Shown here one piece after another: positions 16,648-63,003 of a stretch of DNA of 64,000 nt. The notes under the pieces are model-generated. The model was not told the DNA's origin, searched no databases, and saw only the letters and a list, made by a program, of their open reading frames with translations. Source of the stretch: Heterostelium multicystogenum (lineage: Eukaryota; Evosea; Eumycetozoa; Acytosteliales; Acytosteliaceae); the NCBI GenBank assembly GCA_003667245.1, contig RCNN01000009.1, positions 1 to 64,000 on the forward strand. The letters run 5' to 3'. Position 1 is the stretch's first letter, and the number at the start of each line of letters is the position of its first letter. The translations under genes and the position numbers were made by a program.

Positions 16648-18413
<1,766 letters not shown>

Positions 18414-30382: not shown

Positions 30383-32188
30383 ATGTCCTTCACAGAGTTT
30401 TGCCCAGTGCACAAGAAAAAAAAACAAAAATATCTCTGTGCTGATTGCAAGGTTATGGTATGTGGTGCCTGCATCACTCTTCCTGTACACAAGGGACACA
30501 TATTCGAAACTCCCCCATCTATCCCCTCTCAGTATATATCGAAACTTGTTGAGCCTTTCGAAGTGAATTTCCAGCGGGCAAAAGAGCTTGCCGTCCACAT
30601 CAAAGCAGCAAATGCAAAGATCTCGGAAATCAATCTATTCTTTGCAAAGTACCATGAAGCCATAATGAACGAGGAGCACAAACTCATCAAGCCAATCGTC
30701 GAGTATAAAGAGGAGCTCAGTGAAGCCGTCGCCTCCTATCTGAATCATATATCCAATCAATACACACTCTTTAAGGCTGTAGAAGATATTCAAAACTCTG
30801 GGTCATTCAGCTCATCCGAAGAGGATCAAGGCTTGATCAATGATGTCTCCAACTTTGACGAAAAAGAACAAGTGAGTGATCCGAAGTACGAAAGTATCAC
30901 AAGCATGAAGTTCTCCTACATCAAGCCATTGGCTGTTGAAGAATTTATTGAACTTGCTACCGAAACCAAGACACCAAACGATTTTCTTGACAATAAGGAT
31001 TTACTAGAGATTCCCAGGACTAAGATGGGCAGCGATGAGTTAGTTCGTTGCATAGGTCTCGCTTTGGAAGACAATTCAAAGATGACTGCCGAGATGGAAA
31101 CCAAAATGAAAAATCTCCTTTGTGAAGTCCAATTTAAATTTGAGGTCAATAGAGCAAAACAAGCCAAATCCATTGCAGAGATTAAAGAGGTTTACAATCT
31201 TACAAAATCTGTTTCTAGGATCACAGAAAATAGCCAAAGCACAACCAATGACCCAGCAGATACTGAAATCAAAGAGTCCACAATTACCAGTCTTGGAGGG
31301 TACATGAAGAGATATATTGAAGAATCAACCATCTTCTATATATATGTTGTAGGTGGAATGGAATCAACTCAGCATTTGTCCACAGTTGAAGTATATGACT
31401 TGAAGAACGACCGTTGGGGTATTGTAGAACCCCTTAGAATGAAACGTGCTTGCTCTTCCTCCTCTGTTGCTTGCACTAATGAACACATTTTCATCTTTGG
31501 TGGTAACGATACACTCAACACCTTTGAGCGTTTCAATATCAGCACCAGAAAATGGGATTGTCTTGATAGCATCCCAACAAAAGGTGGTTCTTCTCTTGCT
31601 TGCTGTTATGACAATGGTAGATATATATATCTAGTTGGAGGTATCCAAAATAATAATACCATGGACCGTATTGACAGATTTGATATCGTGACTGGAAAGA
31701 GTGTCCAAGTTGGAAAACTCTGCCACCCTCGATACTACACCTACTCCTGTTTTTATGACGATATCATTTACACCGTCGGAGGTACATGTAAGGAACCCAC
31801 ATCTCCCTACACTCTTGTTAACTCGATCGAATCATTCAACACAAAAGACCCCAACGCAACTTCCACTATCCTAATCAATTTTGGAGGAAATGAAAGAGTC
31901 GAAGCGTGTACCTTTGACAAGCGTGAGTTCATTTACTTTATCACATCCAATGTCTTTGCAAGATACTCGATCCTCAGTAATGAAATTGATAAACTCGAGA
32001 ATCCTCCAATCAAAGAAGGCAAGTTTGGTATGGCAATGGTTTTTGGATATTTTGACAACGATTTCAAGGTCTTTCTTGTTGGTGGCAAAGAAGAAGTTCA
32101 ATATTGTTACTCAATCACCAAGAACACTTGGTCTCCTTTTAAAAAAAAATCAAAATTCTCTTACTTCCATGGAGCTGTCCGCAGTTAA
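30383..32188 (+). CDS. B-box zinc finger / kelch-repeat protein
   Basis: This is a single exon of 601 codons. Residues 8-45 form a B-box zinc finger (CPVH, CADC, CGAC, HKGH). A helical coiled-coil-like region follows (about 60-300). The C-terminal half holds about five kelch repeats marked by YVVGGMES, FIFGGND, YLVGGIQ, YTVGGTC and FLVGGKE, probably folding as a beta-propeller. The arrangement resembles TRIM proteins without the RING, so it could be a scaffold or substrate adaptor and not itself an E3 ligase; that is inference. Such B-box/kelch-like proteins form a large family in dictyostelids. A second member lies at 41.5-43.4 kb. Codon use is less AT-biased than in the flanks, consistent with an expressed gene. 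Confidence 0.85.
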   Translation: MSFTEFCPVHKKKKQKYLCADCKVMVCGACITLPVHKGHIFETPPSIPSQYISKLVEPFEVNFQRAKELAVHIKAANAKISEINLFFAKYHEAIMNEEHKLIKPIVEYKEELSEAVASYLNHISNQYTLFKAVEDIQNSGSFSSSEEDQGLINDVSNFDEKEQVSDPKYESITSMKFSYIKPLAVEEFIELATETKTPNDFLDNKDLLEIPRTKMGSDELVRCIGLALEDNSKMTAEMETKMKNLLCEVQFKFEVNRAKQAKSIAEIKEVYNLTKSVSRITENSQSTTNDPADTEIKESTITSLGGYMKRYIEESTIFYIYVVGGMESTQHLSTVEVYDLKNDRWGIVEPLRMKRACSSSSVACTNEHIFIFGGNDTLNTFERFNISTRKWDCLDSIPTKGGSSLACCYDNGRYIYLVGGIQNNNTMDRIDRFDIVTGKSVQVGKLCHPRYYTYSCFYDDIIYTVGGTCKEPTSPYTLVNSIESFNTKDPNATSTILINFGGNERVEACTFDKREFIYFITSNVFARYSILSNEIDKLENPPIKEGKFGMAMVFGYFDNDFKVFLVGGKEEVQYCYSITKNTWSPFKKKSKFSYFHGAVRS

Positions 32189-33610: not shown

Positions 33611-36600
33611 CATTTGGTGGTAAATGTTGTTACTTTTGCTTATTAAATTTCATTTGGAAGATCAAATGAGTGTGTTTGAACTTAAAACAACACATTCATA
33701 TTACTTTTATATTATTTAAAAGTCTTATAGCACTCAAGTGTGTTTATCATTTACATTGATGGTGGTTATATACTCTACAAATGAGTCTATTATCTATTGT
33801 TTAATCTAGTGGTTATCCCTCCTAAATTTGTTTGCTTGATTGTTGTCTTTCAATGACAATAAAGGTATATTTATAATTGTTGAGGTATAGGTAATTCAAC
33901 TCAATCAATAGTGAAATAACTTCATTCTATTTTAATTCAAACATATATAAAGTGAATCATTTATTATAATTTGATAATGGCACACATTCAATCAGGTGTA
34001 ATTTATATATCTCTAATGAATCTCTAGGTATTGGTGTTACTGTGATATAAATGAAACCACTTCATTGATGTGAATTACAATTTTGATGGTTTAATTTGAA
34101 GTCTAATTAATTATTTATTTAAGAATACAATAGAATAAAATAAATAAGCATAGATCAATTGATCACTAACTATACCAATAGAATTATTATACTCTGTTTG
34201 GAATCAATGCTTAATTATAACTTCATTAATTATATATTTCATTTTTACAATCAATATTTTTTACATAATAACTTTATTTCTATATAAATAAAAATCATTC
34301 AACAATGAATACGATTATATATATGCTTTCTGTTCTGGTAATAATGCATTTGTGTTTTGTTGATGGTATGATTATAATCAAATCCAATATTTTTAAATGA
34401 GTTAATTATTAAATTCATTAAACTTCAATTTCCATAGGTCAAATAGCAACTCTTAGCAACTACAGTTATAATAATGAAAATATCACATTCTTTGGTAGTT
34501 TTGATGTTGAAAAAGAATTTACATTGTATTTTCGAGCAGGTGGAGAGTCTGCTCATAAAAATATTGGTTTTCCAATCAATAATTCAACATTTGTTTATCC
34601 CATTGCCAACATTATACCTCACCAATTTGTCTTCTCATCATCAGTTCAAATATGTACAGAGATATCTATAAATAATTCACACAACTTTATTTGTTCCAAT
34701 GAAATTGAGATCCAATTAATCAGATTAATCCCCAATGATATATATCTTCCAACCTATGAGTCCAATATCACAGTCACAGAACATTCTTTAAATCACTCCA
34801 CAAAGAAGTGTTAAAAATTTGATTTCGGAAGTGAAATCAAATTAATTAATGACTCTCACGGTTATTTCTCAGTTAATCAGAGCTTTATTGAAATGAATAT
34901 TGGAAAGTCATCAATGTCTCCAGAACTAAGAATAGCAAACTTAACATTAAATCCTATGCTTTTTTGGGAGAGTAAGTCTTGATTTCTAATTATTAATCAT
35001 CATTTATTTACATTTTACTTTTTAATACAATATAGATCCACAGATATTTAATGTTACTCAAAGTAATAATTCATTAACCATTTATGGAGCAAATTTTGGT
35101 TTCAATCCCAATGAAATATATATCAAATTGGATGGAAGAGAAAGGTCTAATAAGATTTCAATGCCTATAAACAATACTCAAATCATAATTCCAATATCAA
35201 AACCAACATTTAATTTAACTATTGGTCTCTATCAAGAAATACTTCATTATTCCAAATAGTTAAAAGTATGTCATTTGATTTTATTCAAATATAAACATCA
35301 AAATACTGACAACTTTTTACACTCAAGTTGATTCCGTTCAACGGAACTCATATAGCTATTTTTTCGATCAAGATGAAAGGTGTATTTCCTGAGATTACTG
35401 AAGGAACCATTATCAAATCTATATTTATGGAAGATATCCCATGTTTAAATATCAGTTTCGATAGAATTGATACATTTACATGCAATATGATTTCAACCAA
35501 TTTGAATGGAAGTTTGGAATACACTCCGAAAGTTAGATTGGCCAATAATGTTGAATTATTTGGAATGGTTCAGACAATTCCATTGATAATCAACAATATT
35601 TCACCATTTGATAGTACTGTTATTAAATTTACATTGTCCAAAGATATTCCAGATGTGATTGAGAATGATTTCCTGATCACATTTGGTGGAAGTGTTTGTG
35701 TCCCTAATTTTAGTATAAAAAATAACGTCTTCATATGTAGTAGAAACCAATCGAATTTAATAAGTCCTTCAAATGATATTAACATTGTCTTTAAGTTAAT
35801 TCAAATTAATTTGAGTAAGTAAATTAATAAATTAACTGATCTATCGAGCATTATACACTTATAAATTAAATTAATATGATATTATTCTTCCATAGATATT
35901 ACTTTTATCTATAAAGTAGAATATTCAGGTGAAAGTGTTATTGTTTATGGAAAGAGAATTACTGAACCTCAAAAATTCCGAGTAGGAAGTACAACCTGTG
36001 ATATTACCAGTTTTACAAATGATAATTTAACATATCATTGCAACAATATAAATACAACTATTCCCAACGATTATATCCTTACTTTAAAGAGTGGTGATAC
36101 TTATAATGGAATTTTAAGTGCACAGATTCCAACAGATGTGGAAACAAACAACAAAGATAAAGGTAACTAATTTATCAATTTCAAAACAAAGCAAAACATA
36201 TTTAATACTAATATTTATTGATAACATATAAAGATAATGACACCAAATTGGTAACGATTATTGTTCCATCTGTTTTCGGGGCTATTTGTTTAATAGTCAC
36301 AATAGTATTCATTATAAGAGAGTTCATTTGGAAAAGATTTTATAATCAGAGAAATCCTCAACCTGATAATGCCGATGGAATTGAACTAGCTCCAGTTGTT
36401 AATCACCCGCCAGATCAAAACCAAGGAAATAATATTCAACCAAATAGAAACCAAGAATCCACCAACCTCCACCAAATGACAATGCAATTGAAATAGTTCA
36501 AAATGGGGACCAACCTCAAGAAAATCAGCAAGTTGTTGCTAACAATATCGAACAAGATCAGGGTGCTAACTTACCTCAAGGAAATGAACAAGATGCTCCT

Positions 36601-36958: not shown

Positions 36959-39530
36959 GCATTTGGTGGTAAATGTTGTTACTTTTGCTTATTAAATTTC
37001 ATTTGGAAGAACAAATGAGTGTGTTTGAACTTAAAACAACACATTCAAATTACTTTTATATTCTTTAAAAGTCTTATAGCACTCAAGTGTTGTGTTTATC
37101 ATTTACACACATGGTGGTTATATACTCTACAAATGGGTCTATTATCTATTGTTTAATCTAGTGGTTATCCCTCCTAAATTTGTTTGCTTGATTTGTTGTC
37201 TTTCAATGACAATAAAGGTATATTTATAATTGTTGAGGTATAGGAAATTCTACTCAAATATTGGTGAATAACTTCCAAATCACCTCAAAAGTCTATTTTA
37301 ATTCAAACACATAAAGTGAATCATTTATTATAATTTGATAATCGCACATTCAATCAGGTGTATTTTATATCTCTCTCATATTTCTCTAGGTATTGTTGTT
37401 ACTGTGATATAATTGAAACCACTTCATTGATATGAGTAACAATTTTTGATGGTTTAATTTGAAGTCTAATAAATTATTTAAGAATACATAATAATGGAAT
37501 AAATAAGTATTGAATCGATCACAAACCATAACTTCATTAACTATATTAGTTATAATAATATATCTATCTATCTTTAAAATATAATCAACAATGAATACAA
37601 TTATCTATATATTTTCTATTCTAGTTATCTTCAATTTTTACATTTCGAAAAGCATAAGTCAAACACATTTGTTAAAACCTATAGTTATAACAATGAAAAT
37701 ATCACATTATTTGGTAATTTTGTTGTTGAAAATAATTATACTTTGGGATATTACTTTCATCAAATTTTATCTTTTCAAAGTTTGATTCATCCAATTAATA
37801 ATTCGACATTGGTGTTTCCAATTGACCTTACTTTAGTCATCTCACCATTTGTTCAAATATGTTCAGATAAATACCAACCTACCTGTTTCCAACAAATTGA
37901 CATCCAATTAATCAGATTAATTCCCAATGATATATATCTTCCAACCTATGAGTCCAATATCACAGTCACAGGAACATTCTTTAAATCACTCCACAAAGAA
38001 GTGTTAAAATTTGATTTCGGAAGTGAAATCAAATTAATTAATGACTCTCACGGTTATTTCTCAGTTAATCAGAGCTTTATTGAAATGAATATTGGAAAGT
38101 CATCAATGTCTCCAGAACTAAGAATAGCAAACTTAACATTAAATCCTATGCTTTTTTGGGAGAGTAAGTCTTGATTTCTAATTATTAATCATCATTTATT
38201 TTACATTTTACTTTTTAATACAATATAGATCCACAGATATTTAATGTTACTCAAAGTAATAATTCATTAACCATTTATGGAGCAAATTTTGGTTTCAATC
38301 CAATGAAATATATATCAAATTGGATGGAAGACAAAGATCTAATAAGATTTCAATGCCGATAAACAATACTCAAATAATTGTTCCAATATCAAAACCAACA
38401 TTTAATTTAACTATTGGTCTCTATCAAAGAAATACTTCATTATTCCAAATAGTTAAAAGTATGTCATTTGATTTTATCCAATGTAAAAATCAAAATACTT
38501 ATAACTTTTTACACTCAAGTTGATTCCGTTCAACGGAACTCATATAGCTATTTTTCAATCAAGATGAAAGGTGTATTTCCTGAGATTGTTGAAGGAACCA
38601 TTATCAAATCTATATTTATGGAAGATATCCCATGTTTAAATATCAGTTTCGATAGAATTGATACATTTTCATGCAGGATAGCTTCAACCAATTTGAATGG
38701 AAGTTTGGAATACACTCCGAAAGTTAGATTGGCCAACAATGTTGAATTATTTGGAATGATTCAGACTATTCCATTGATAATCAACAATATTTCACCATTT
38801 GATAGTACTGTTATTAAATTTACATTATCAAAAGATATTCCAGATGTGATTGAGAATGATTTTCTGATCACATTTGGTGGAAGTCTTTGTGTCTCCAATA
38901 TTAATATCACCAACATCAATCGAATTTAATAAGTCCTTCAAATGATATTAACATTGTCTTTAGGTCAACTCAAATTAATTTGAGTAAGTAAATTAATAAT
39001 TAACTTATCAATCCAACATTATACACTTATACATTGAATTAATATGATATTATTCTTCAATAGATATTACTTTTATCTTTAAAGTAGAATATTCAGGTGA
39101 AAGTGTTATTATTTATGGAAAAAGAATTTCAGAGCCGGAATCATTAATGATTGGAAATATACTTTGTAATATTACAAGCCACACAAATGATAACATGACA
39201 TATCAGTGCATTAATATTAATTCCAACGAATATATACTTACTTTAAAAAATGGAAATAATTATAATGGTATAATACGGGAACAGAAAATAAACCCTATAA
39301 CAATATCAAAAGGAGATGGTAACTATAAATCATAATGTTTTTTGATATAATCTAACATTTTTTTAACTTGTTAAGATATTGACTCTAAAAAGGTTGCGAT
39401 TATTTCTACACCAGTGTTGGGAGCTATTGGATTACTCATCGGAATGGTCATCTTTATCCGAGTATTAATAAGGAGAAGGAATCTGTGAAAGTTCTCAAAT
39501 GCACTTGAAATTTAACCAAACCAAGTTCCT
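36959..39530 (+). repeat. Tandem duplication, copy B
   Basis: This is the second copy, directly head-to-tail. Upstream DNA and exons align to copy A throughout; divergence is highest in the first exon and in the cytoplasmic tail region, where copy B is much shorter. The distal boundary is approximate. Confidence 0.85.
37591..39488 (+). CDS. IPT/TIG-like type I membrane protein, copy B (short tail)
   Basis: This is the paralogue of the gene at 34305. The signal peptide MNTIIYIFSILVIFNFYI runs directly into the ectodomain with no intron. Conserved blocks shared with copy A include RLIPNDIYLPTYESN, HGYFSVNQSFIEMNIG, MKGVFPEI and PFDSTVIKFTLSKDIPDV. After an intron near 39.32-39.38 kb comes the membrane helix (STPVLGAIGLLIGMVIFI), and the protein stops nine residues later at RVLIRRRNL. 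Copy B therefore lacks the long Asn/Pro-rich tail and may act as a ligand-type or decoy partner; that is inference. Single-base breaks (near 37676, 38310 and 38925) can be repaired by comparison with copy A. Confidence 0.7.
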
Positions 39531-39733: not shown

Positions 39734-40748
39734 TCAGTAGTTTTTGGAGAATCTGTTTTTGGTTTCTGGAAGTTTGGCGGTTGGCTCTGGCAAACCGAGT
39801 TGCTTACGTTTTGCCTCCCATTCGTCGGTTTCACGTTTGTTGGTGGTGTTCAATGGTGTTCCGTTACGGATAGCTTCAATCTCCAAACGAGTCAGCTTGA
39901 TAGACTCGAAAGCATAGTCAATGAATGCTTCACAGGCAACTGGTACGATTGGCTTAATGAGGGCAAAGATGGTGTTTGCATAGTCACGGATTTCCTTTTG
40001 TGAGTGTGAGTCCATTCTGAGTCTGAGGAAATGGAAAAGATTGTGAAGATCGATCTTCCAGTACCACTCTGTGTAGACAGAGACTGGCAAACCAATACGA
40101 GCCAACTCACGTGAGACACCCTTGTCGAGCAACTCGGCATAGGTCTTGTAGTTGGCCTCGACTTGATCGAGATAGTCTAAGAACTCTTGAGCAGTCTTGG
40201 CGTCGGTAGCATCTTCACCACCTTGACGGTTGGAGGTAGATTGCTTACGAACATCGTCGGCTGATGGGTGGTAGAATTTGTCTGGCATGACTGAGTATCT
40301 TGCGCTGTACTCATTGACGTTGGCTGTTCTGTGTCTAATCCATTGTCTGGCAATGAATACTGGCATGACACAGTGGAATTTGAACTCAATCATTTCAAAT
40401 GGCGAAGTGTGTTGGTGTCTGTAGAGGTAACGGATCAAACCTTTGTCCTCGGTGACCTTCTTGGTTCCGGCACCATATGAAACACGAGCGGCTTGGCAAA
40501 TAGCAAAGTCAGCGGTTTGGCCGACTGGTGCAAGTCTTGGCATAGCATCAACCAAAGCAACTCTAAAAGAGCCCATCAAATCATTAGTATCAATGTAGTT
40601 TCGAACAAAATCAGTAGCTATGTTGAACATACTTTCCGTGGTCGTGTACCTTGACTTCCCAACGGTGACTTCCGTTCATGACATCATAGTATTCAGTCTC
40701 TGGTTGTACCTTTGTGATTTGAATTTGATCAATACCCAATGAGTCCAT
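39734..40748 (-). CDS. thyX: FAD-dependent thymidylate synthase ThyX
   Basis: This enzyme makes dTMP from dUMP using methylene-tetrahydrofolate, with FAD and NADPH, in place of the classical ThyA enzyme. Exon 1 (40748-40633) begins MDSLGIDQIQITKVQPE, and an intron at 40632-40563 joins HDHGK to VALVDAMPRLAP in frame. The diagnostic ThyX motif RHRTANVNEYSARYS is present, as are the conserved DLHNLFHFLRLRMD substrate-binding segment and RQWIRHR. Length is about 315 residues. Dictyostelids are among the few eukaryotes that use ThyX, thought to come from bacteria by transfer. The frame is intact, which makes it a useful contrast with the broken genes nearby. Confidence 0.95.
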
Positions 40749-41534: not shown

Positions 41535-43385
41535 TTACAATGAATAAATGATAGATGCACAATTGGTTCTTATTGCATTATCATTTGTTAATATTTGCTC
41601 CCAAACGTCGCTTTCAATTGAATATACATAGTTGTTAGGACCTCCTTGGATCGAGTAGATATACGACTCGGTGGGTGATACCTGGTGGAAGATAAGACTA
41701 CTGTTGGATTCTTTCACTGAAATCCCCTTCAGTTCAACTATGGTTTCGGGGCACAGGATATTGAATCGGTAGAATTGTTTCGGTGTGAGGATGTAGATAT
41801 TTCCTTGGTTGTCTGTGCAGGTGGAACTCTTGAGCGGAATAGTATTTGGTTGAAGCTGTACATCCGACACCTGTTTGTCATGTGGGTTAAATTTCATAAT
41901 ACGGTGCTTTGATGGCATTATAGTATAGACATGGTCCTTGAAGTAAAACGCAACATGAGGGTAGGTTGTCTTTTCGATTACAGAGTAATTTTCAAGGTGT
42001 TGGTCTCGACATTGTACCTTGTGATACCAGTGTCATTTCGCCAATTTCCATCTATGATATAAATATACAAGCCATCATCGTAGCACACAGCCGGATAGCT
42101 GCAAGGCTCCACTCCTGTCATCTCTCTATCAATGTCTATGGTTTGGGTAGCTATTGAGAATCTTTGGTATCTGTTGGACTTTGAGTCACCACCGAATCGA
42201 TATATAAAGTCACCGACAAGGATGGTCGAATTATAAGCCCAGATATCAGACACCGCGGAGTCCAACTCAACGATGTCAGCCGAAGCTATTGAATGTCCTC
42301 CGGTAATATCGAATATTGATATCTTATGGTTATTCTTTTTAAATTGTGTCGAGAATAGATAGGTTGATTTCTTAAGAGGCTGTCCAATGTCATTCTTGAT
42401 AATGGATTTCAGAGTAAATGATTGGCTGACCAGCTTCTTTATATTTTTTGAGTGTATTGGAATATGCAATCAACTTGTGGGTTATGTAGCCTTCCTTTTT
42501 CAAAGATTGTTGTTGGCCGTCAAATGATTTGAACTTTCGATTATGTTTAATAATTGAGTCCAGTATCAAGCAGTCCCTGTTGCAGCTATCATATATTGAT
42601 CTTTCATTGCCTTCGCTGAGATAGAAAGAGTTGCTATTTTCTTTGATGAACTCATCAAATGTATTCAAAGATTTAATGGATGCAATGATGCTTGGTAGAT
42701 TATGCCTCCCTGTGGAGTCCGCACCTATACTGTCATTTTCAATATCAATCTCACTTCCATCTTTGTTGTTGCTATTGCTATTGTTGTTGTTGTTATCTGT
42801 CTTTGTGCTTTTCAGCTCAAATTCTATTAGCTTTAGTATTGTATTATAGGATTTGATTTCTGAAAGATATTGCTCAAATAGCTGTAGTAGTTTATCTCGA
42901 TCAGAGGCGATTGGTTTCTTCAGTTTGTGCTCCTCCACAATGAGGTATTGGTGTAAATCATGAAAGTGGTTTGATATTTCGTCTTCAACTGACTGGAGCG
43001 AAGAGTATCTCTCGGCCTGTATCTTGCACTCATTCCACAGTCGTTCCATACTTGCTTTAAAGTTACAATAGCCAAGGTGTTGATCAACCGACATACCTAA
43101 TTGACTTTCATTCAAAGTAGTACTCTTATCATGATGGTCACTCGCCAACAGAACGCCGCCGTTGAGCGATAGGCCCAAACTGCTTTTTATCTCCTCGATA
43201 TGGTCCAATACATGAGCAGGATGCTTAGAGGTGCATCTCGAGCAAATCAAAGTATTACAAGTGAAGCAGATCAACTTGATTGATTTCTTATGGGTAGGAC
43301 ACTTTCCTGCTGTATCTAGAGGTATTATTTGTTCTTCCATATTCGATTGGAAACAACCCGAATGAATTGAAGTGAATTCATTCAT
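41535..43385 (-). CDS. B-box zinc finger protein with degenerate kelch-like repeats
   Basis: The start is MNEFTSIHSGCF, or the internal methionine before EEQIIPLDTAGK. The B-box is CPTH, CFTC, CSRC and HPAH (about residues 29-60). A helical region follows with a short Asn tract (NNNNNSNSNN), and the C-terminal half has beta-propeller-like repeats (TILVGDFIYRFGGDS, DGLYIYIIDGN, GNIYILTPKQFYRF). It is a paralogue in domain order of the gene at 30383. Two frame breaks fit homopolymers: one A too many at 42444-42449 and one too few at 41989-41992. Repaired, the protein is about 615 residues. It lies 200 bp downstream of the OAS-like gene on the same strand, each with its own short AT-rich spacer; no functional link is proven. 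Confidence 0.75.
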
Positions 43386-43582: not shown

Positions 43583-44689
43583 TTATTTACAAGTTGAAGA
43601 TAGTTTATTTATATCTATCAGCAATTTATCTAAAAGCCTTAATAGACTTGATTGTGTTGATTTTAAATGGTGATTGTTTTCTGGTTGAAATCGTGCAACC
43701 TCGTAGTCTATATATTCACTTCTGCTATCGTATAAGGGCGAGCTTGGCTCTTCTATAATCTTGGATAAAAGATGTATGCTTTCAAAAGACATTCTATTAT
43801 ACTCTTCATATATCCAATGACACTGCTTCTTGAAAAAATACTCTGACGTTTGTGGAGTGTGTCGCAGGCTGCTTTTCATGAGTGTCTGCTAAGAGTTGGA
43901 GAAGAATCTGATGTTGACAAATTGCTTTGTGATATTCTATCCATAGCCAATACCATGTGGTAGCCTTTGAGGATAGACATTTCATTAGGACACTGTGACT
44001 TCATATCATTCTTCCACAGCTTCAGTAAAAGAATGGCACAAAGCTGGGCATCGTTAAATTTACATGGTGTGTTTGGAGAAATAGGTCTCATCTCTGGTTG
44101 CTGCTGCTGCTGCTGTTGGGGAATAAAAATCGATGATGTGAGCCACTCTCTTGATTTGTTCTCTTGTGTCGGTGTTACTGAGTAGATTCTTCCGTTCTGT
44201 CCTATCATTTTGGGAAAGAGGTCCACTGGGACCGCAATGTTCTCCACCACTATATCAAATGAGATGCTTCTGGTGTTGTTGGTCGATACTTTTCTAACAC
44301 AATCCAGTTGCTTCGTTAGTATTTTGGATAGAACATTAACTAACTTTGGGAAATCATTGGCCGTCATTTGTTCTGGGGTCACAAAGGAACGAGGCAGTAT
44401 TAAGTCTATATCCAGATCGAATGTGCCTTTTAAACCTGTTTCCAGAATGAATGAACCAATGGGGATAATTATCGATGATTTAAAACACTTTGATAGGCCA
44501 GCCTGGAGAACAGCCAAGCAGTGTGCATAGAAGTGATAATCCACCTGGATCGAGCGATAGAACATATACAGTGACTCATCAGTTTGGAAATCATAAATTT
44601 CTTTAAAACTTGGCTCAACTGGATTATCATTTGAAATACTTTCTAGCTCAGACAACAAAGAATCAAAACTATTACTTTGAAGATTATTA

Positions 44690-44742
<53 letters not shown>

Positions 44743-44871
44743 TGTAAATTCAATTATAGGTATAGTTTTAATTATATTTAGCATATTATTATTATTGTTT
44801 TTCTCTTTTACATTAATATTATCACTACAAGTAGTGACCAACTTTTTATCAGGTAATAACAATTCTTGCAT
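43583..44871 (-). CDS. OAS/CD-NTase-like nucleotidyltransferase
   Basis: The start is ATG at 44871. A poly-Asn tract (about residues 44-62) precedes the fold. Residues 139-156 read GSFILETGLKGTFDLDID: the GS motif, T145, L147, G149 and catalytic D152/D154 have exactly the spacing of the 2'-5'-oligoadenylate synthetase active site (GSSGKGTTLRGRSDAD). A block NTRSISFDIV is followed by VPVDLFP, where D217 would be the third metal ligand, like the NPRALSF..FDVLPA pair of OAS. Later, LCAILLLKLWKND matches the conserved helix after the active site. These enzymes make 2'-5' or cyclic oligonucleotide messengers in immunity. The frame breaks near 43876 and resumes in an overlapping frame to 43583, giving about 430 residues. 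No other domain is seen. Assignment rests on motif spacing only; a non-canonical poly(A)/TUTase is the main alternative. Confidence 0.6.
44690..44743. repeat. (ATT)n microsatellite coding poly-Asn
   Basis: About 16-18 ATT units, read as AAT on the minus strand, form the poly-Asn tract of the OAS-like protein. Confidence 0.9.
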
Positions 44872-51301: not shown

Positions 51302-53022
51302 ATGAAGTGTGTGACAGAGCAATATTGCTTGTTTGCTTTGTTTGTAGTATTTCTAACAATGTCTGTATCGACGACTGTTGTGAAGTCTGAGGTGCCAAAT
51401 GGTGGTATGATGATGTACGAGCTCTCGACAAGACCATGGCTATACAATCTATCACAGCAATACAATCAAAACTTTACACAACTCTCACGTATGTATTATT
51501 ATTAGCTTTCAAGTGATCTTTGGCAATATTCTATTTGAAACTATTCATTGATCCACTAGAGGGCAGATAGAGAGACCTGCATAAGTAAACTAAACTATCA
51601 ATCAAATTTGATGATCAATTCTTTATAAACATTGTTTCTAGAAATACCGATGGTTGAATTCCAAAAGATCAAGGCAATGGGTTTTGATATGGTTTGGCTT
51701 ATGGGTCTGTGGGAGCTGGGTGCTTATGGTTTGAACTACGATCGTACCAATCAGCCTTTGCTTCAGCACTACGCACAAGTCCTGCCAGGATACACCGTTG
51801 ATGACATCATTGGATCACCTTATGCCGTTACAAACTACACATTGAACCCTCAACTGGGCTCAATGGCCGATCTTGCTGTCTTGAGAAAGCAGCTCAACGA
51901 TATGGGATTGCTGTTGATGGTTGACTTTTGTGCCAAACCACTCGGCAGTCGACTGTCCATGGACAACAACTGATCCAGATTACTATATTCGTGCACCACA
52001 GGGAACAAATCCTCCCTATGATCCAAATACCTACTTGCCCAATGGTATTGCCTACGGAAGTGCTGGATGGGGTGGAGCATGGCAAGACACTGCCCAACTC
52101 AACTACTGGAATCCAACACTGGTCAAAGCTCGTATTTGCTCAGCTACTCGAGTTAGCCTCCGTAGCCGATGCAATTCGTTGCGACATGGCCTACCTCTTG
52201 TTGAATGAACTCTTTGGTCAGAACTGGCAATCACAACTTCAATCATGGGGATATACTCAACCATCAACTGAGTTTTGGGAACAAGCAATCCAAATTGTCA
52301 AGGGAGAATTCCCCGATATTATATTCCTGGCTGAGGTATACCACCCATGGGAATCTCAGCTTCAGCAACTTGGATTCGATTACACCTACGACAAGATGTT
52401 GCACGACTATTTGGGTGGAGGAAATCTAGATCAAGTCCGTGGCTGGATCTCTGGCAATACAATTCAATTTGCTCAACACTCTGCACACTTTTGTTCAAAT
52501 CATGATGAGCCACGTGCAGCTAATTTCTTTGGAAGTTGGTGGCGTGCCGATGCAGCTGCTCTTGTCACCTACACCATGCCAGGATTAAGATTCTTCTGGT
52601 GGGGTGACTTTGAGGGTTACCAAAATCAACTTGATGTACATCTTCGTCGTGAAGAATCTGAGGCTGCAGTTGACACTGTAACCCAATTCTATCAAAATCT
52701 AACTTCAATTGTCTCGGACCCAGTATTCAAATATGGTACATTCGAGTATCTTAACGTTACTGGATCCAACACCGAATGGACTTTGATCGCTTACAAATGG
52801 ACTTACCAAAACGAAAAGCGTCTTTGTGTCATAAACTTTAGTGAAACACAAGGATCTGGATCTATCATCTTGAGCGACGCCGAACCAATCAATGGAAACG
52901 ACACCATTCCAGTGACAGACTTACTCTCTGGTACTACTTATTTCAGATCAGCTCAACAAATGAGAACCACCGGTTTGTTTGTAGTTGTAAATACATGGTA
53001 TGGTCAAATATTCAAATATTAA
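51302..53022 (+). CDS. Secreted GH13 alpha-amylase-family glycosidase
   Basis: Exon 1 (51302-51488) carries a signal peptide (LFALFVVFLTMSVSTTVV); an intron at 51489-51641 leads into the barrel. Conserved regions appear in order: region I DFVPNHS (once the frame is repaired), region II ADAIRCDMA with the nucleophile Asp, region III FLAEVYHP with the acid/base Glu, and region IV CSNHDEPRA with the transition-state Asp. All three catalytic acids are present. C-terminal beta-sandwich residues end at 53022; total length is about 500 residues. Two single-T excesses (51926-51929 and 52135-52137) break the frame, each repaired exactly at a conserved motif. The likely substrate is alpha-glucan, in food-vacuole or extracellular digestion; specificity within GH13 is not determined. 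Confidence 0.88.
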
Positions 53023-61717: not shown

Positions 61718-63003
61718 GTGGTATGATATTAAAGAGATTAAATATTCATTGTTGTACGCAGTGTACAACTTCCCAAACATGGTTATTGTATTCTTTGGTG
61801 GATTTTTGATTGATACTGTTTTCGGTTTGAAGTGGGGATCCATCTTTTTCTGTATTTGTGTATTTGTTGGACAGATCATCTTTGCGATTTCCACCGACTC
61901 CAAGACCTTCTGGTTGGCCTTGCTTGGTCGTACCATTTTCGGTTTGGGTGGTGAGTCACTCTCTGTCGCTCAGTCCACTTTCTGCGCAACATGGTTCAAT
62001 GGACGTAGCGATTTGAACTTGGCATTCTCGATTACTCTTGGTTTCTCTCGTATCGGTAGTGCCATCAACTTCCAAATCACCCCAGCACTCATGGACAAGT
62101 ACAGCATTCCAGTCGCCGTCTGGTTCGGTGCTATCTGCTGTGGTGTCTCGTTCGCCGCAACCATCATTCTCTGCTTCCTCGACATTGCCCGTGCAAAGCG
62201 TGACGCTGGAACCGATGTCGTCAAGAACGACCCAGTCTCAATCAAGGATATTGCCAAGTTCCCAAAGATGGTCTGGCTGATCTTTGCTCTCGTCGTTTTC
62301 TTCTACGTTCCACTCTTTGTATTCGTCTCAATCGGTGGACAGTTCTTCTCCACCAAGTTTGGTGTATCAACCAACGCCGCCGATACATTGACCAGTATTC
62401 CTTACTTCACTGCTGCACCATCACCAGTCATTGGTTTCGCCATTGATCGTGTTGGTCACAATCTCACCTGGATGGCTGGTTCCATGGTCTTGTTGGTCGT
62501 TTCTCACTCCATTCTCGGATACACCATGGTTAACCCACACGTCGGTATGATCATGATGGGATTCAGTTATGCTATCATGGCCGCCTCCATCTGGCCAACC
62601 ATTCCAGCATTGATCCCATCATCTCGTCTCGGTACAGCCTATGGTCTTGCCTTTGCTTTCCAGAATGCCGCCATCGCCCTTTCAGGTCTCGCCATCAATG
62701 CCATCCTTGAAAAGACAAACAACAACTACATGTAAGTTCGCAGCCATCATCGCTTGCACACAACCTAGCTAACCTCCTCTCCTTATCTCATCATACAGGT
62801 ACACTCAATCAATTTTCGTAGGTGTTGCAGGTGTAGGTTTGATTATTGTCATCCTCTTGATTTTGATCGATCTCAAGGAGAAGAAGATCAACATTCCATC
62901 ACAACAAATGAAGGACAATATGAAGAGATTGAACGAGCAATCCGAACCATTGCTCTCAGAGAACTCTTCCATTAACAACAACAGCCAAGAAGTTGTTTTT
63001 TAA
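61140..63003 (+). CDS. MFSD1-like major facilitator transporter
   Basis: Exon 1 (61140-61233) starts MSEVKSGIWDTLF. Exon 2 (61307-61345) reads DIPSAIQPKFIDP. A short, uncertain exon near 61.40-61.45 kb comes next, then the main exon through 62731 and a last exon from 62800. Twelve hydrophobic helices are expected. Family motifs include FFGGFLIDTVFGLKWGS, LGRTIFGLGGESLSVAQ and FSRIGSAINFQITP, which match MFSD1, a lysosomal dipeptide exporter in animals. The C-terminal tail carries SEPLLSEN, a dileucine-type sorting signal, which fits endolysosomal location. One T is missing in the run at 61190-61194, so exon 1 as written stops early. Codons are strongly C-ending, consistent with high expression. 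Confidence 0.85.
61687..61718. repeat. (TTA)n microsatellite
   Basis: An ATT/TTA run lies at the 3' end of an intron of the MFSD1-like gene, next to the acceptor AG. Confidence 0.8.

What the first reader, a model, noticed from the sequence alone, without database searches (positions are those of the whole stretch)
43583..44871. OAS/CD-NTase-like enzyme in a social amoeba
Residues 139-156 have GS..T.L.G..D.D with the same spacing as 2'-5'-oligoadenylate synthetase, followed by an N-x-R-x-x-SF block and a third Asp in VPVDLFP. This suggests an active nucleotide second-messenger synthetase, and hence a possible immune or stress sensor in an organism that preys on bacteria. The poly-Asn N-terminus is dictyostelid-specific, which argues for a resident gene and not contamination. 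No known effector is seen next to it; the B-box neighbour is only a candidate partner by position. The superfamily is known from established work; the assignment is mine.
Basis: partly seen in the sequence, partly recalled or inferred. Interest (0 to 1): 0.8.

Follow-up and report, generated by a model that had tools for sequence, protein, structure and literature searches.

The report
Divergent cGAS/OAS-type enzyme, social amoeba

Summary
On the minus strand (44871 to 43583) lies a gene with poly-Asn, GS-x11-DxD (residues 139-154), an N-x-R-x-x-SF block and a third Asp in VPVDLFP. Its loose motif occurs once in 1,421 translated peptides from 264 kb of this genome, in this gene; with the third acid it occurs in 0 of 200,000 shuffles. 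The G-to-first-acid spacing equals that of OAS1, cGAS and cGLR1 and differs by one from two of this genome's poly(A)-polymerase-type loci. The frame break is best explained by a 65-base phase-0 GT-AG intron, 43889-43953. Splicing creates a cGAS/Mab-21 signature across the junction (YHMQT...PQTSEY against YHVKT...PQDSQW); a four-sequence profile of that region ranks the spliced product first of 870 peptides. The C-terminal half thus looks cGLR/Mab-21-like, not OAS-like. No homologue was found by sequence, no Pfam hit passed its cut-off, and no usable structure was obtained. Verdict: probably a divergent CD-NTase with an intact triad; OAS membership is not supported; product, trigger and immune role are untested.

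The parts
43954..44871 (-). Exon 1, residues 1-306: poly-Asn N-terminus, predicted long helix, nucleotidyltransferase core, start of the C-terminal half
   Evidence: ORF listing and translation; intron model
43889..43953 (-). Candidate intron, 65 nt, phase 0, GTATTG...CTCTTAG with a pyrimidine-rich 3' end
   Evidence: Frame logic. A transporter-like gene in the window has a similar short intron, 67 nt, 62732-62798. The spliced product gains a cGAS/Mab-21 signature
43583..43888 (-). Exon 2, residues 307-407 and stop codon
44692..44742 (-). Poly-Asn tract, residues 44-60
44404..44457 (-). GSFILETGLKGTFDLDID, residues 139-156: G-S and the first acids (D152, D154; D156 follows)
   Evidence: spacing compared with OAS1, cGAS, cGLR1 as printed and with two own PAP-type loci
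44257..44277 (-). N199-x-R201-x-x-S204-F205 block, aligned with N-x-R-x-L-S/T-F of mammalian OAS
44212..44232 (-). VPVDLFP, residues 214-220, third acid D217
43838..43962 (-). YHM|QTLMKSSLRHTPQTSEY, residues 304-323, across the intron: cGAS/Mab-21-type signature

Best explanation
A resident dictyostelid gene with one short intron, for which no second copy was found, encodes a 407-residue, highly diverged CD-NTase-type nucleotidyltransferase. Shown at sequence level: the GS and three-acid motif set in the right order with CD-NTase spacing, and a cGAS/Mab-21-like signature in the C-terminal half that appears only when the intron is removed. Inferred: it binds two metal ions through D152, D154 and D217 and joins NTPs into a linear or cyclic oligonucleotide. 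Also inferred, and weaker: a ligand on the C-terminal half switches it on, and the product acts on an unidentified effector. The cGAS zinc thumb is absent, so a cGAS-like DNA sensor is not expected.
For: Motif set and rarity. First acid at position 14 counted from the G, as in OAS1, cGAS and cGLR1, against 13 in own PAP-type loci L008 and L009, the 2 of 5 examined (of 8 loci) in which the motif was found. Collinear MAFFT alignment with 16 mammalian OAS, 23-26% identity; hhalign places GS, N.R..SF and VxxD on OAS in order, but not significantly (P 0.59). cGAS/Mab-21 C-terminal profile: spliced 11.1-11.6 bits; reached by 12 of 20,000 shuffles and 6 of 10,000; rank 1 of 870, next at 5.2 bits; hhalign P 0.011, though probability only 3.7%, at the same place. 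Unspliced: 2.2-3.5 bits. OAS N-core profile: 47 of 10,000 shuffles. Low-confidence model with a fitting order of elements.
Against: No homologue in the protein database, PDB by sequence, viral or prokaryotic contigs. No NCBIfam or PADLOC match. For the spliced protein the best Pfam hit is a PAP-type palm, MTPAP-like_central, E 0.022, 15.3 bits against a cut-off of 27. The cGLR N-core profile does not match (3,886 of 10,000 shuffles). With real ORFs as decoys the OAS N-core profile ranks it only 21st of 608 scored and the full OAS profile 66th of 486. Pairwise scores against human OAS1 and cGAS are not above shuffles (Z -0.80 to 1.01). Models have mean pLDDT 38.5 and 50.0. The cGAS/Mab-21 likeness was noticed by eye before the profile was built.
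Confidence: 0.62

Rival explanations
1. A divergent poly(A) polymerase or terminal uridylyltransferase-type enzyme acting on RNA ends.
For: The only Pfam nucleotidyltransferase signal is MTPAP-like_central, E 0.022 and 0.029 for the core alone. Own PAP-type profile: 223 of 10,000 shuffles. The genome has such enzymes.
Against: 15.3 bits is under the cut-off of 27. GS-to-acid spacing is one residue longer than in own PAP-type loci L008 and L009. hhalign needs a gap between GS and DxD. Against real ORFs the PAP-type profile ranks it 57th of 564 scored. The C-terminal half resembles cGAS/Mab-21.
Confidence: 0.15
2. A Mab-21-like or MiD51-like protein that keeps the fold but has a non-signalling role.
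For: The C-terminal signature is of the cGAS/Mab-21 type. Many members of that superfamily in animals are not known to be sensors (recalled).
Against: GS and all three acids are present; MAB21L1 as printed lacks the GS and the third acid. The cGLR N-core profile does not match.
Confidence: 0.13
3. A frame-broken gene: pseudogene, or an assembly error that splits an intact reading frame.
For: Two other genes in the window show frame breaks in T runs that look like assembly errors. Donor GTATTG is not the commonest form (recalled). Codon scores did not decide.
Against: A GT-AG intron of a size also seen in a neighbouring gene restores one frame exactly and creates a family signature across the join; two alternative frame readings score 0.9 and 2.6 bits against 11.1.
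Confidence: 0.12
4. Another nucleotidyltransferase-fold protein or a chance likeness.
For: Absence of homologues and of a usable model.
Against: Two separate motif regions in the right order; shuffle counts.
Confidence: 0.1

Closest known systems
2'-5'-oligoadenylate synthetase (OAS1; PDB 4ig8, 1px5)
   Same: GS-x11-DxD spacing, T, L and G at the same motif positions, N-x-R-x-[LI]-SF block, third Asp followed by [LV][LF]P; collinear over exon 1
   Different: No OAS1_C match; the C-terminal half does not match an OAS profile; poly-Asn N-terminus
cGAS / cGAS-like receptors / Mab-21 (PDB 5v8o, 8gjy, 5eog)
   Same: YHx[KQ]T-x9-Px4[WY] signature at the same spacing, after an LK helix and a preceding W
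   Different: No Mab-21 Pfam match; N-core profile not matched; no Cys/His zinc thumb in the corresponding loop (read from the translation)
eSMODS and bacterial CD-NTases
   Same: eSMODS are a eukaryotic CD-NTase class reported from Amoebozoa among others (PMC10732462, passages)
   Different: PMC10732462 says all eSMODS were predicted to have PF01909; this protein has no such hit. SMODS was not found in the genome. No bacterial CD-NTase sequence was compared directly
MTPAP-like poly(A) polymerases / TUTases
   Same: Weak Pfam signal on the palm
   Different: Motif spacing differs by one residue from two own loci

Membership tests
CD-NTase superfamily | GS motif and [DE]xD with CD-NTase spacing | tested here: met
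   comparators as printed
CD-NTase superfamily | Third acid on a following strand | tested here: met
   D217 in VPVDLFP aligns with the third Asp of OAS; the strand itself comes from a low-confidence model
CD-NTase superfamily | Nucleotidyltransferase fold with helical C-terminal domain | tested here: inconclusive
   Models of exon 1 only, pLDDT 38.5 and 50.0; fold searches not meaningful at that confidence
CD-NTase superfamily | Synthesis of a nucleotide second messenger | not testable with these tools
   Needs biochemistry
OAS | OAS1_C domain | tested here: not met
   No Pfam OAS1_C match for the spliced protein at E 10; own C-terminal OAS profile 3,805 of 10,000 shuffles, mammalian sequences only. 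Genome search also empty, but its controls were silent
OAS | dsRNA-activated 2'-5' linkage | not testable with these tools
   Needs biochemistry
cGLR / Mab-21 | C-terminal YHxKT signature region | tested here: met
   with K replaced by Q and W by Y, and only if the proposed intron is spliced
cGLR / Mab-21 | Mab-21 Pfam match | tested here: not met
   No match at E 10 for the spliced protein or three pieces of it
cGLR / Mab-21 | Core resembling cGLR core by profile | tested here: not met
   3,886 of 10,000 shuffles reach the score; profile built from four sequences only
cGAS proper | Zinc thumb (Cys/His cluster before the YHxKT region; recalled) | tested here: not met
   One Cys between W243 and the LCAILLLKLW helix, by reading the translation
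PAP/TUTase | GS-to-acid spacing of that class | tested here: not met
   two own loci as yardstick
PAP/TUTase | Pfam palm model over cut-off | tested here: not met
   15.3 bits against 27

The most novel reading that the evidence does not exclude
A catalytically intact, so far unrecognised CD-NTase lineage of social amoebae that joins an OAS-like active-site block to a cGLR-like C-terminal half and makes an oligonucleotide signal during bacterial or viral infection, possibly acting upstream of the amoeba TIR NADases.
Probability: 0.18. Interest if true: 0.85.

Novelty: new variant of a known kind. Interest (0 to 1): 0.5.

Why it matters
A 2023 survey found the cGLR superfamily almost entirely in animals, with a few homologues in Amoebozoa, choanoflagellates and others. 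[quoted passage not shown] A diverged dictyostelid CD-NTase that family profiles miss would question such absence calls. A 2026 preprint reports that Dictyostelium amoebae carry highly active TIR NADases related to bacterial TIR-STING, at loci without known regulatory domains (PMC13142454, abstract and passages), so a nucleotide-signal enzyme in the same group would be a testable candidate in amoeba immunity. The link between the two is inference only.

Tried and rejected
Homology: two database searches with the ORF (796 candidates, none at E 1, residues 84-318, 423 candidates, none at E 10). The database includes eukaryotic sources (EukProt, nr), but the search needs shared five-residue words, so orthologues under roughly 45% identity can be missed (my estimate). 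Viral and prokaryotic contigs: nothing. Own genome: no second copy; the six other hits all cover the Asn-rich part.

Structure: single-sequence model of exon 1, pLDDT 38.5; with 16 OAS rows 50.0. Foldseek on both models (50 of 179 matches listed, all 49) and VIA-align on the second (23 rows listed) gave only weak matches to unrelated proteins; no nucleotidyltransferase was among the rows listed. Uninformative at this confidence.

Pairwise Smith-Waterman with 300 shuffles each, Z with BLOSUM45 and BLOSUM62: human OAS1 -0.80 and -0.42, mouse OAS1 0.55 and -0.30, pig OAS1 -0.21 and -0.25, opossum OAS 2.73 (5 of 300) and 1.34 (34 of 300), human cGAS 0.17 and 1.01. Codon scores did not decide the intron. 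Effectors: STING models found nothing, but their controls were silent too; TIR (PF13676) and Mab-21 N-terminal (PF03281) searches did not complete. Operon-like link with the B-box gene: rejected as unsupported; a second B-box-type gene lies at 30383-32188 (by reading).

Full report
Gene and coordinates. The gene runs on the minus strand. ORF1 spans 44871-43876 (331 aa) and ORF2 43879-43583 (98 aa), in different frames. Residues counted from the ATG at 44871: poly-Asn 25-29 and 44-60, GS 139-140, D152, D154, D156, N199-x-R201-x-x-S204-F205, D217, W243, poly-Gln 252-258. The window lies in an unnamed 29.7 Mb, 528-contig genome. That it is a dictyostelid is my inference from poly-Asn and gene content, not a taxonomic test.

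Is the motif more than chance. In 264 kb of this genome (the window plus 20 stretches of 10 kb), 1,421 six-frame peptides of 60 aa or more hold one match to the loose GS...[DE]x[DE] pattern, the gene itself. Shuffling residues 85-306 gives 71 of 200,000 for that pattern and 0 of 200,000 with the third acid added. The patterns were written with the answer in view, so the counts flatter the match.

The frame break. I listed GT-AG pairs that join the two ORFs into an open product of at least 395 aa. Four exist in the range scanned: donor 43953 with acceptors 43889 and 43886, and donor 43918 with acceptors 43872 and 43869. The first pair is 65 nt and phase 0, with a pyrimidine-rich 3' end, and yields 407 aa. 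A transporter-like gene in the same window has a 67-nt intron with 52% AT, so short introns that are not very AT-rich occur here; the candidate has 65% AT. Against this, two other genes (lipoamide dehydrogenase-like near 17475 and amylase-like near 51920, names by recall) have frame breaks in T runs, so assembly errors are also possible. Codon scores were indecisive.

What the splice creates. The spliced sequence reads LKGYHM|QTLMKSSLRHTPQTSEY. Human cGAS reads FSSYHVKTAFFHVCTQNPQDSQW and MAB21L1 NNYHMKTLVSYECEKHPRESDW, ungapped from the Y on. In the four-sequence alignment A2 the columns Y276, H277, K279, T280, P290 and W295 are invariant; the amoeba protein has Y, H, T and P, with Q for K and Y for W. 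I noticed this by eye, then built a profile from human cGAS, a second cGAS (mouse, recalled), cGLR1 and MAB21L1. Spliced product: 11.1 bits, reached by 12 of 20,000 shuffles (19,899 of them scored), against 2.2 for ORF1, 0.9 and 2.6 for two alternative frame readings, and no score for ORF2. With another shuffle set: 11.2 bits, 6 of 10,000; unspliced 3.5 bits, 710 of 10,000. Against 869 genomic ORFs of 80 aa or more (ORF1 and ORF2 among them; 617 of the 870 scored) it ranks first, at 11.6 bits, the next at 5.2; ORF1 alone ranks 9th at 3.4. hhalign finds the same stretch, 26 columns, with P 0.011 but a probability of only 3.7%. The evidence is modest, but it supports the intron and the family together. 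An OAS C-terminal profile does not match: 3,805 of 10,000 shuffles, rank 109 of 590 scored.

The catalytic half. The position of the first acid, counting from the G, is 14 in the query, OAS1, cGAS and cGLR1, and 13 in the two own-genome PAP-type loci where the motif was found, of five loci examined out of eight. By profile the core is nearest OAS among three tested: OAS 47, PAP-type 223, cGLR 3,886 of 10,000 shuffles. Against real ORFs, however, the OAS core profile ranks it only 21st of 608 scored, the full OAS profile 66th of 486, the PAP-type profile 57th of 564 and the cGLR core profile 334th of 540. hhalign lines up GS, N.R..SF and VxxD with OAS in order over 90 columns at 29% identity, but with P 0.59; with the PAP-type pair it aligns 19 columns with a gap between GS and DxD, P 0.39. 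So the core is CD-NTase-like by motif, and its nearest family is open.

Negative results. Pfam gave MTPAP-like_central at E 0.022 for the spliced protein (0.029 for the core alone), below its cut-off, and families that I take as unrelated; NCBIfam and PADLOC gave none; PDB by sequence gave five weak matches, mostly to the Asn run, for ORF1 and none for the spliced protein without it. No relative was found in 5.8 billion proteins, viral contigs or prokaryote genomes. OAS1_C, Mab-21_C and SMODS were not found in the genome (the OAS1_C controls were silent, the Mab-21_C control rang in one genome below cut-off, SMODS in three). AlphaFold models are weak and fold searches uninformative. In the second model (its residue 1 is protein residue 61) the elements are helices 6-19 and 41-69, strands 73-85 and 89-100, helix 113-134, strands 143-149 and 152-158, helices 214-229 and 236-245, an order that fits a CD-NTase; but its alignment held OAS rows, so this is partly built in.

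Mechanism. Most likely the enzyme binds NTPs and two metal ions through D152, D154 and D217 and makes an oligonucleotide; the GS loop would hold the triphosphate (established for this superfamily, recalled). What activates it is unknown. The cGAS zinc thumb is missing, so DNA sensing of the cGAS kind is unlikely. No effector was identified: STING searches were empty with silent controls, and the TIR and Mab-21 N-terminal searches did not complete.

Literature. A 2023 survey reports a few cGLRs from Amoebozoa, eSMODS in Amoebozoa among others, and OAS-like homologues in 8 of 12 supergroups (PMC10732462, passages); the search term Dictyosteli has no occurrence in its main text. In a 2025 preprint on choanoflagellate cGLR-STING the two passages with Amoebozoa concern STING (PMC12424679, passages). 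A 2026 preprint on Dictyostelium TIR NADases mentions CD-NTase once and cGAS once (PMC13142454, abstract, outline and passages). In a review of the Dictyostelium infection model cGAS occurs in one sentence on xenophagy and in a reference (PMC11552500, passages). My six searches listed, in titles and abstract starts, no paper on a dictyostelid CD-NTase; two of them listed only 15 of 95 and 12 of 99 papers, one 10 of 11, and supplementary tables were not read.

Noticed in passing
window 16648-17980 and 51500-53022: A lipoamide dehydrogenase-like and an amylase-like gene (names by recall) each break frame in a run of T, which looks like assembly error and not introns.
   Followed up: partly
window 30383-32188 and 41535-43385: Two B-box-type genes with kelch-like repeats (by reading; Pfam B-box tested only on 42390-43385); the second, next to the finding, is split over several frames.
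   Followed up: partly
window 35328-35822 and 38468-38929: Two ORFs with 110 of 121 aligned residues identical, probably a recent tandem copy; function not tested.
   Followed up: partly
window 39734-40630: A ThyX-like (flavin-dependent) thymidylate synthase gene, name by recall, on the minus strand near the finding.
   Followed up: no
window 62732-62798: A 67-nt GT-AG intron with only 52% AT in a transporter-like gene (name by recall); splicing joins the reading frame.
   Followed up: yes
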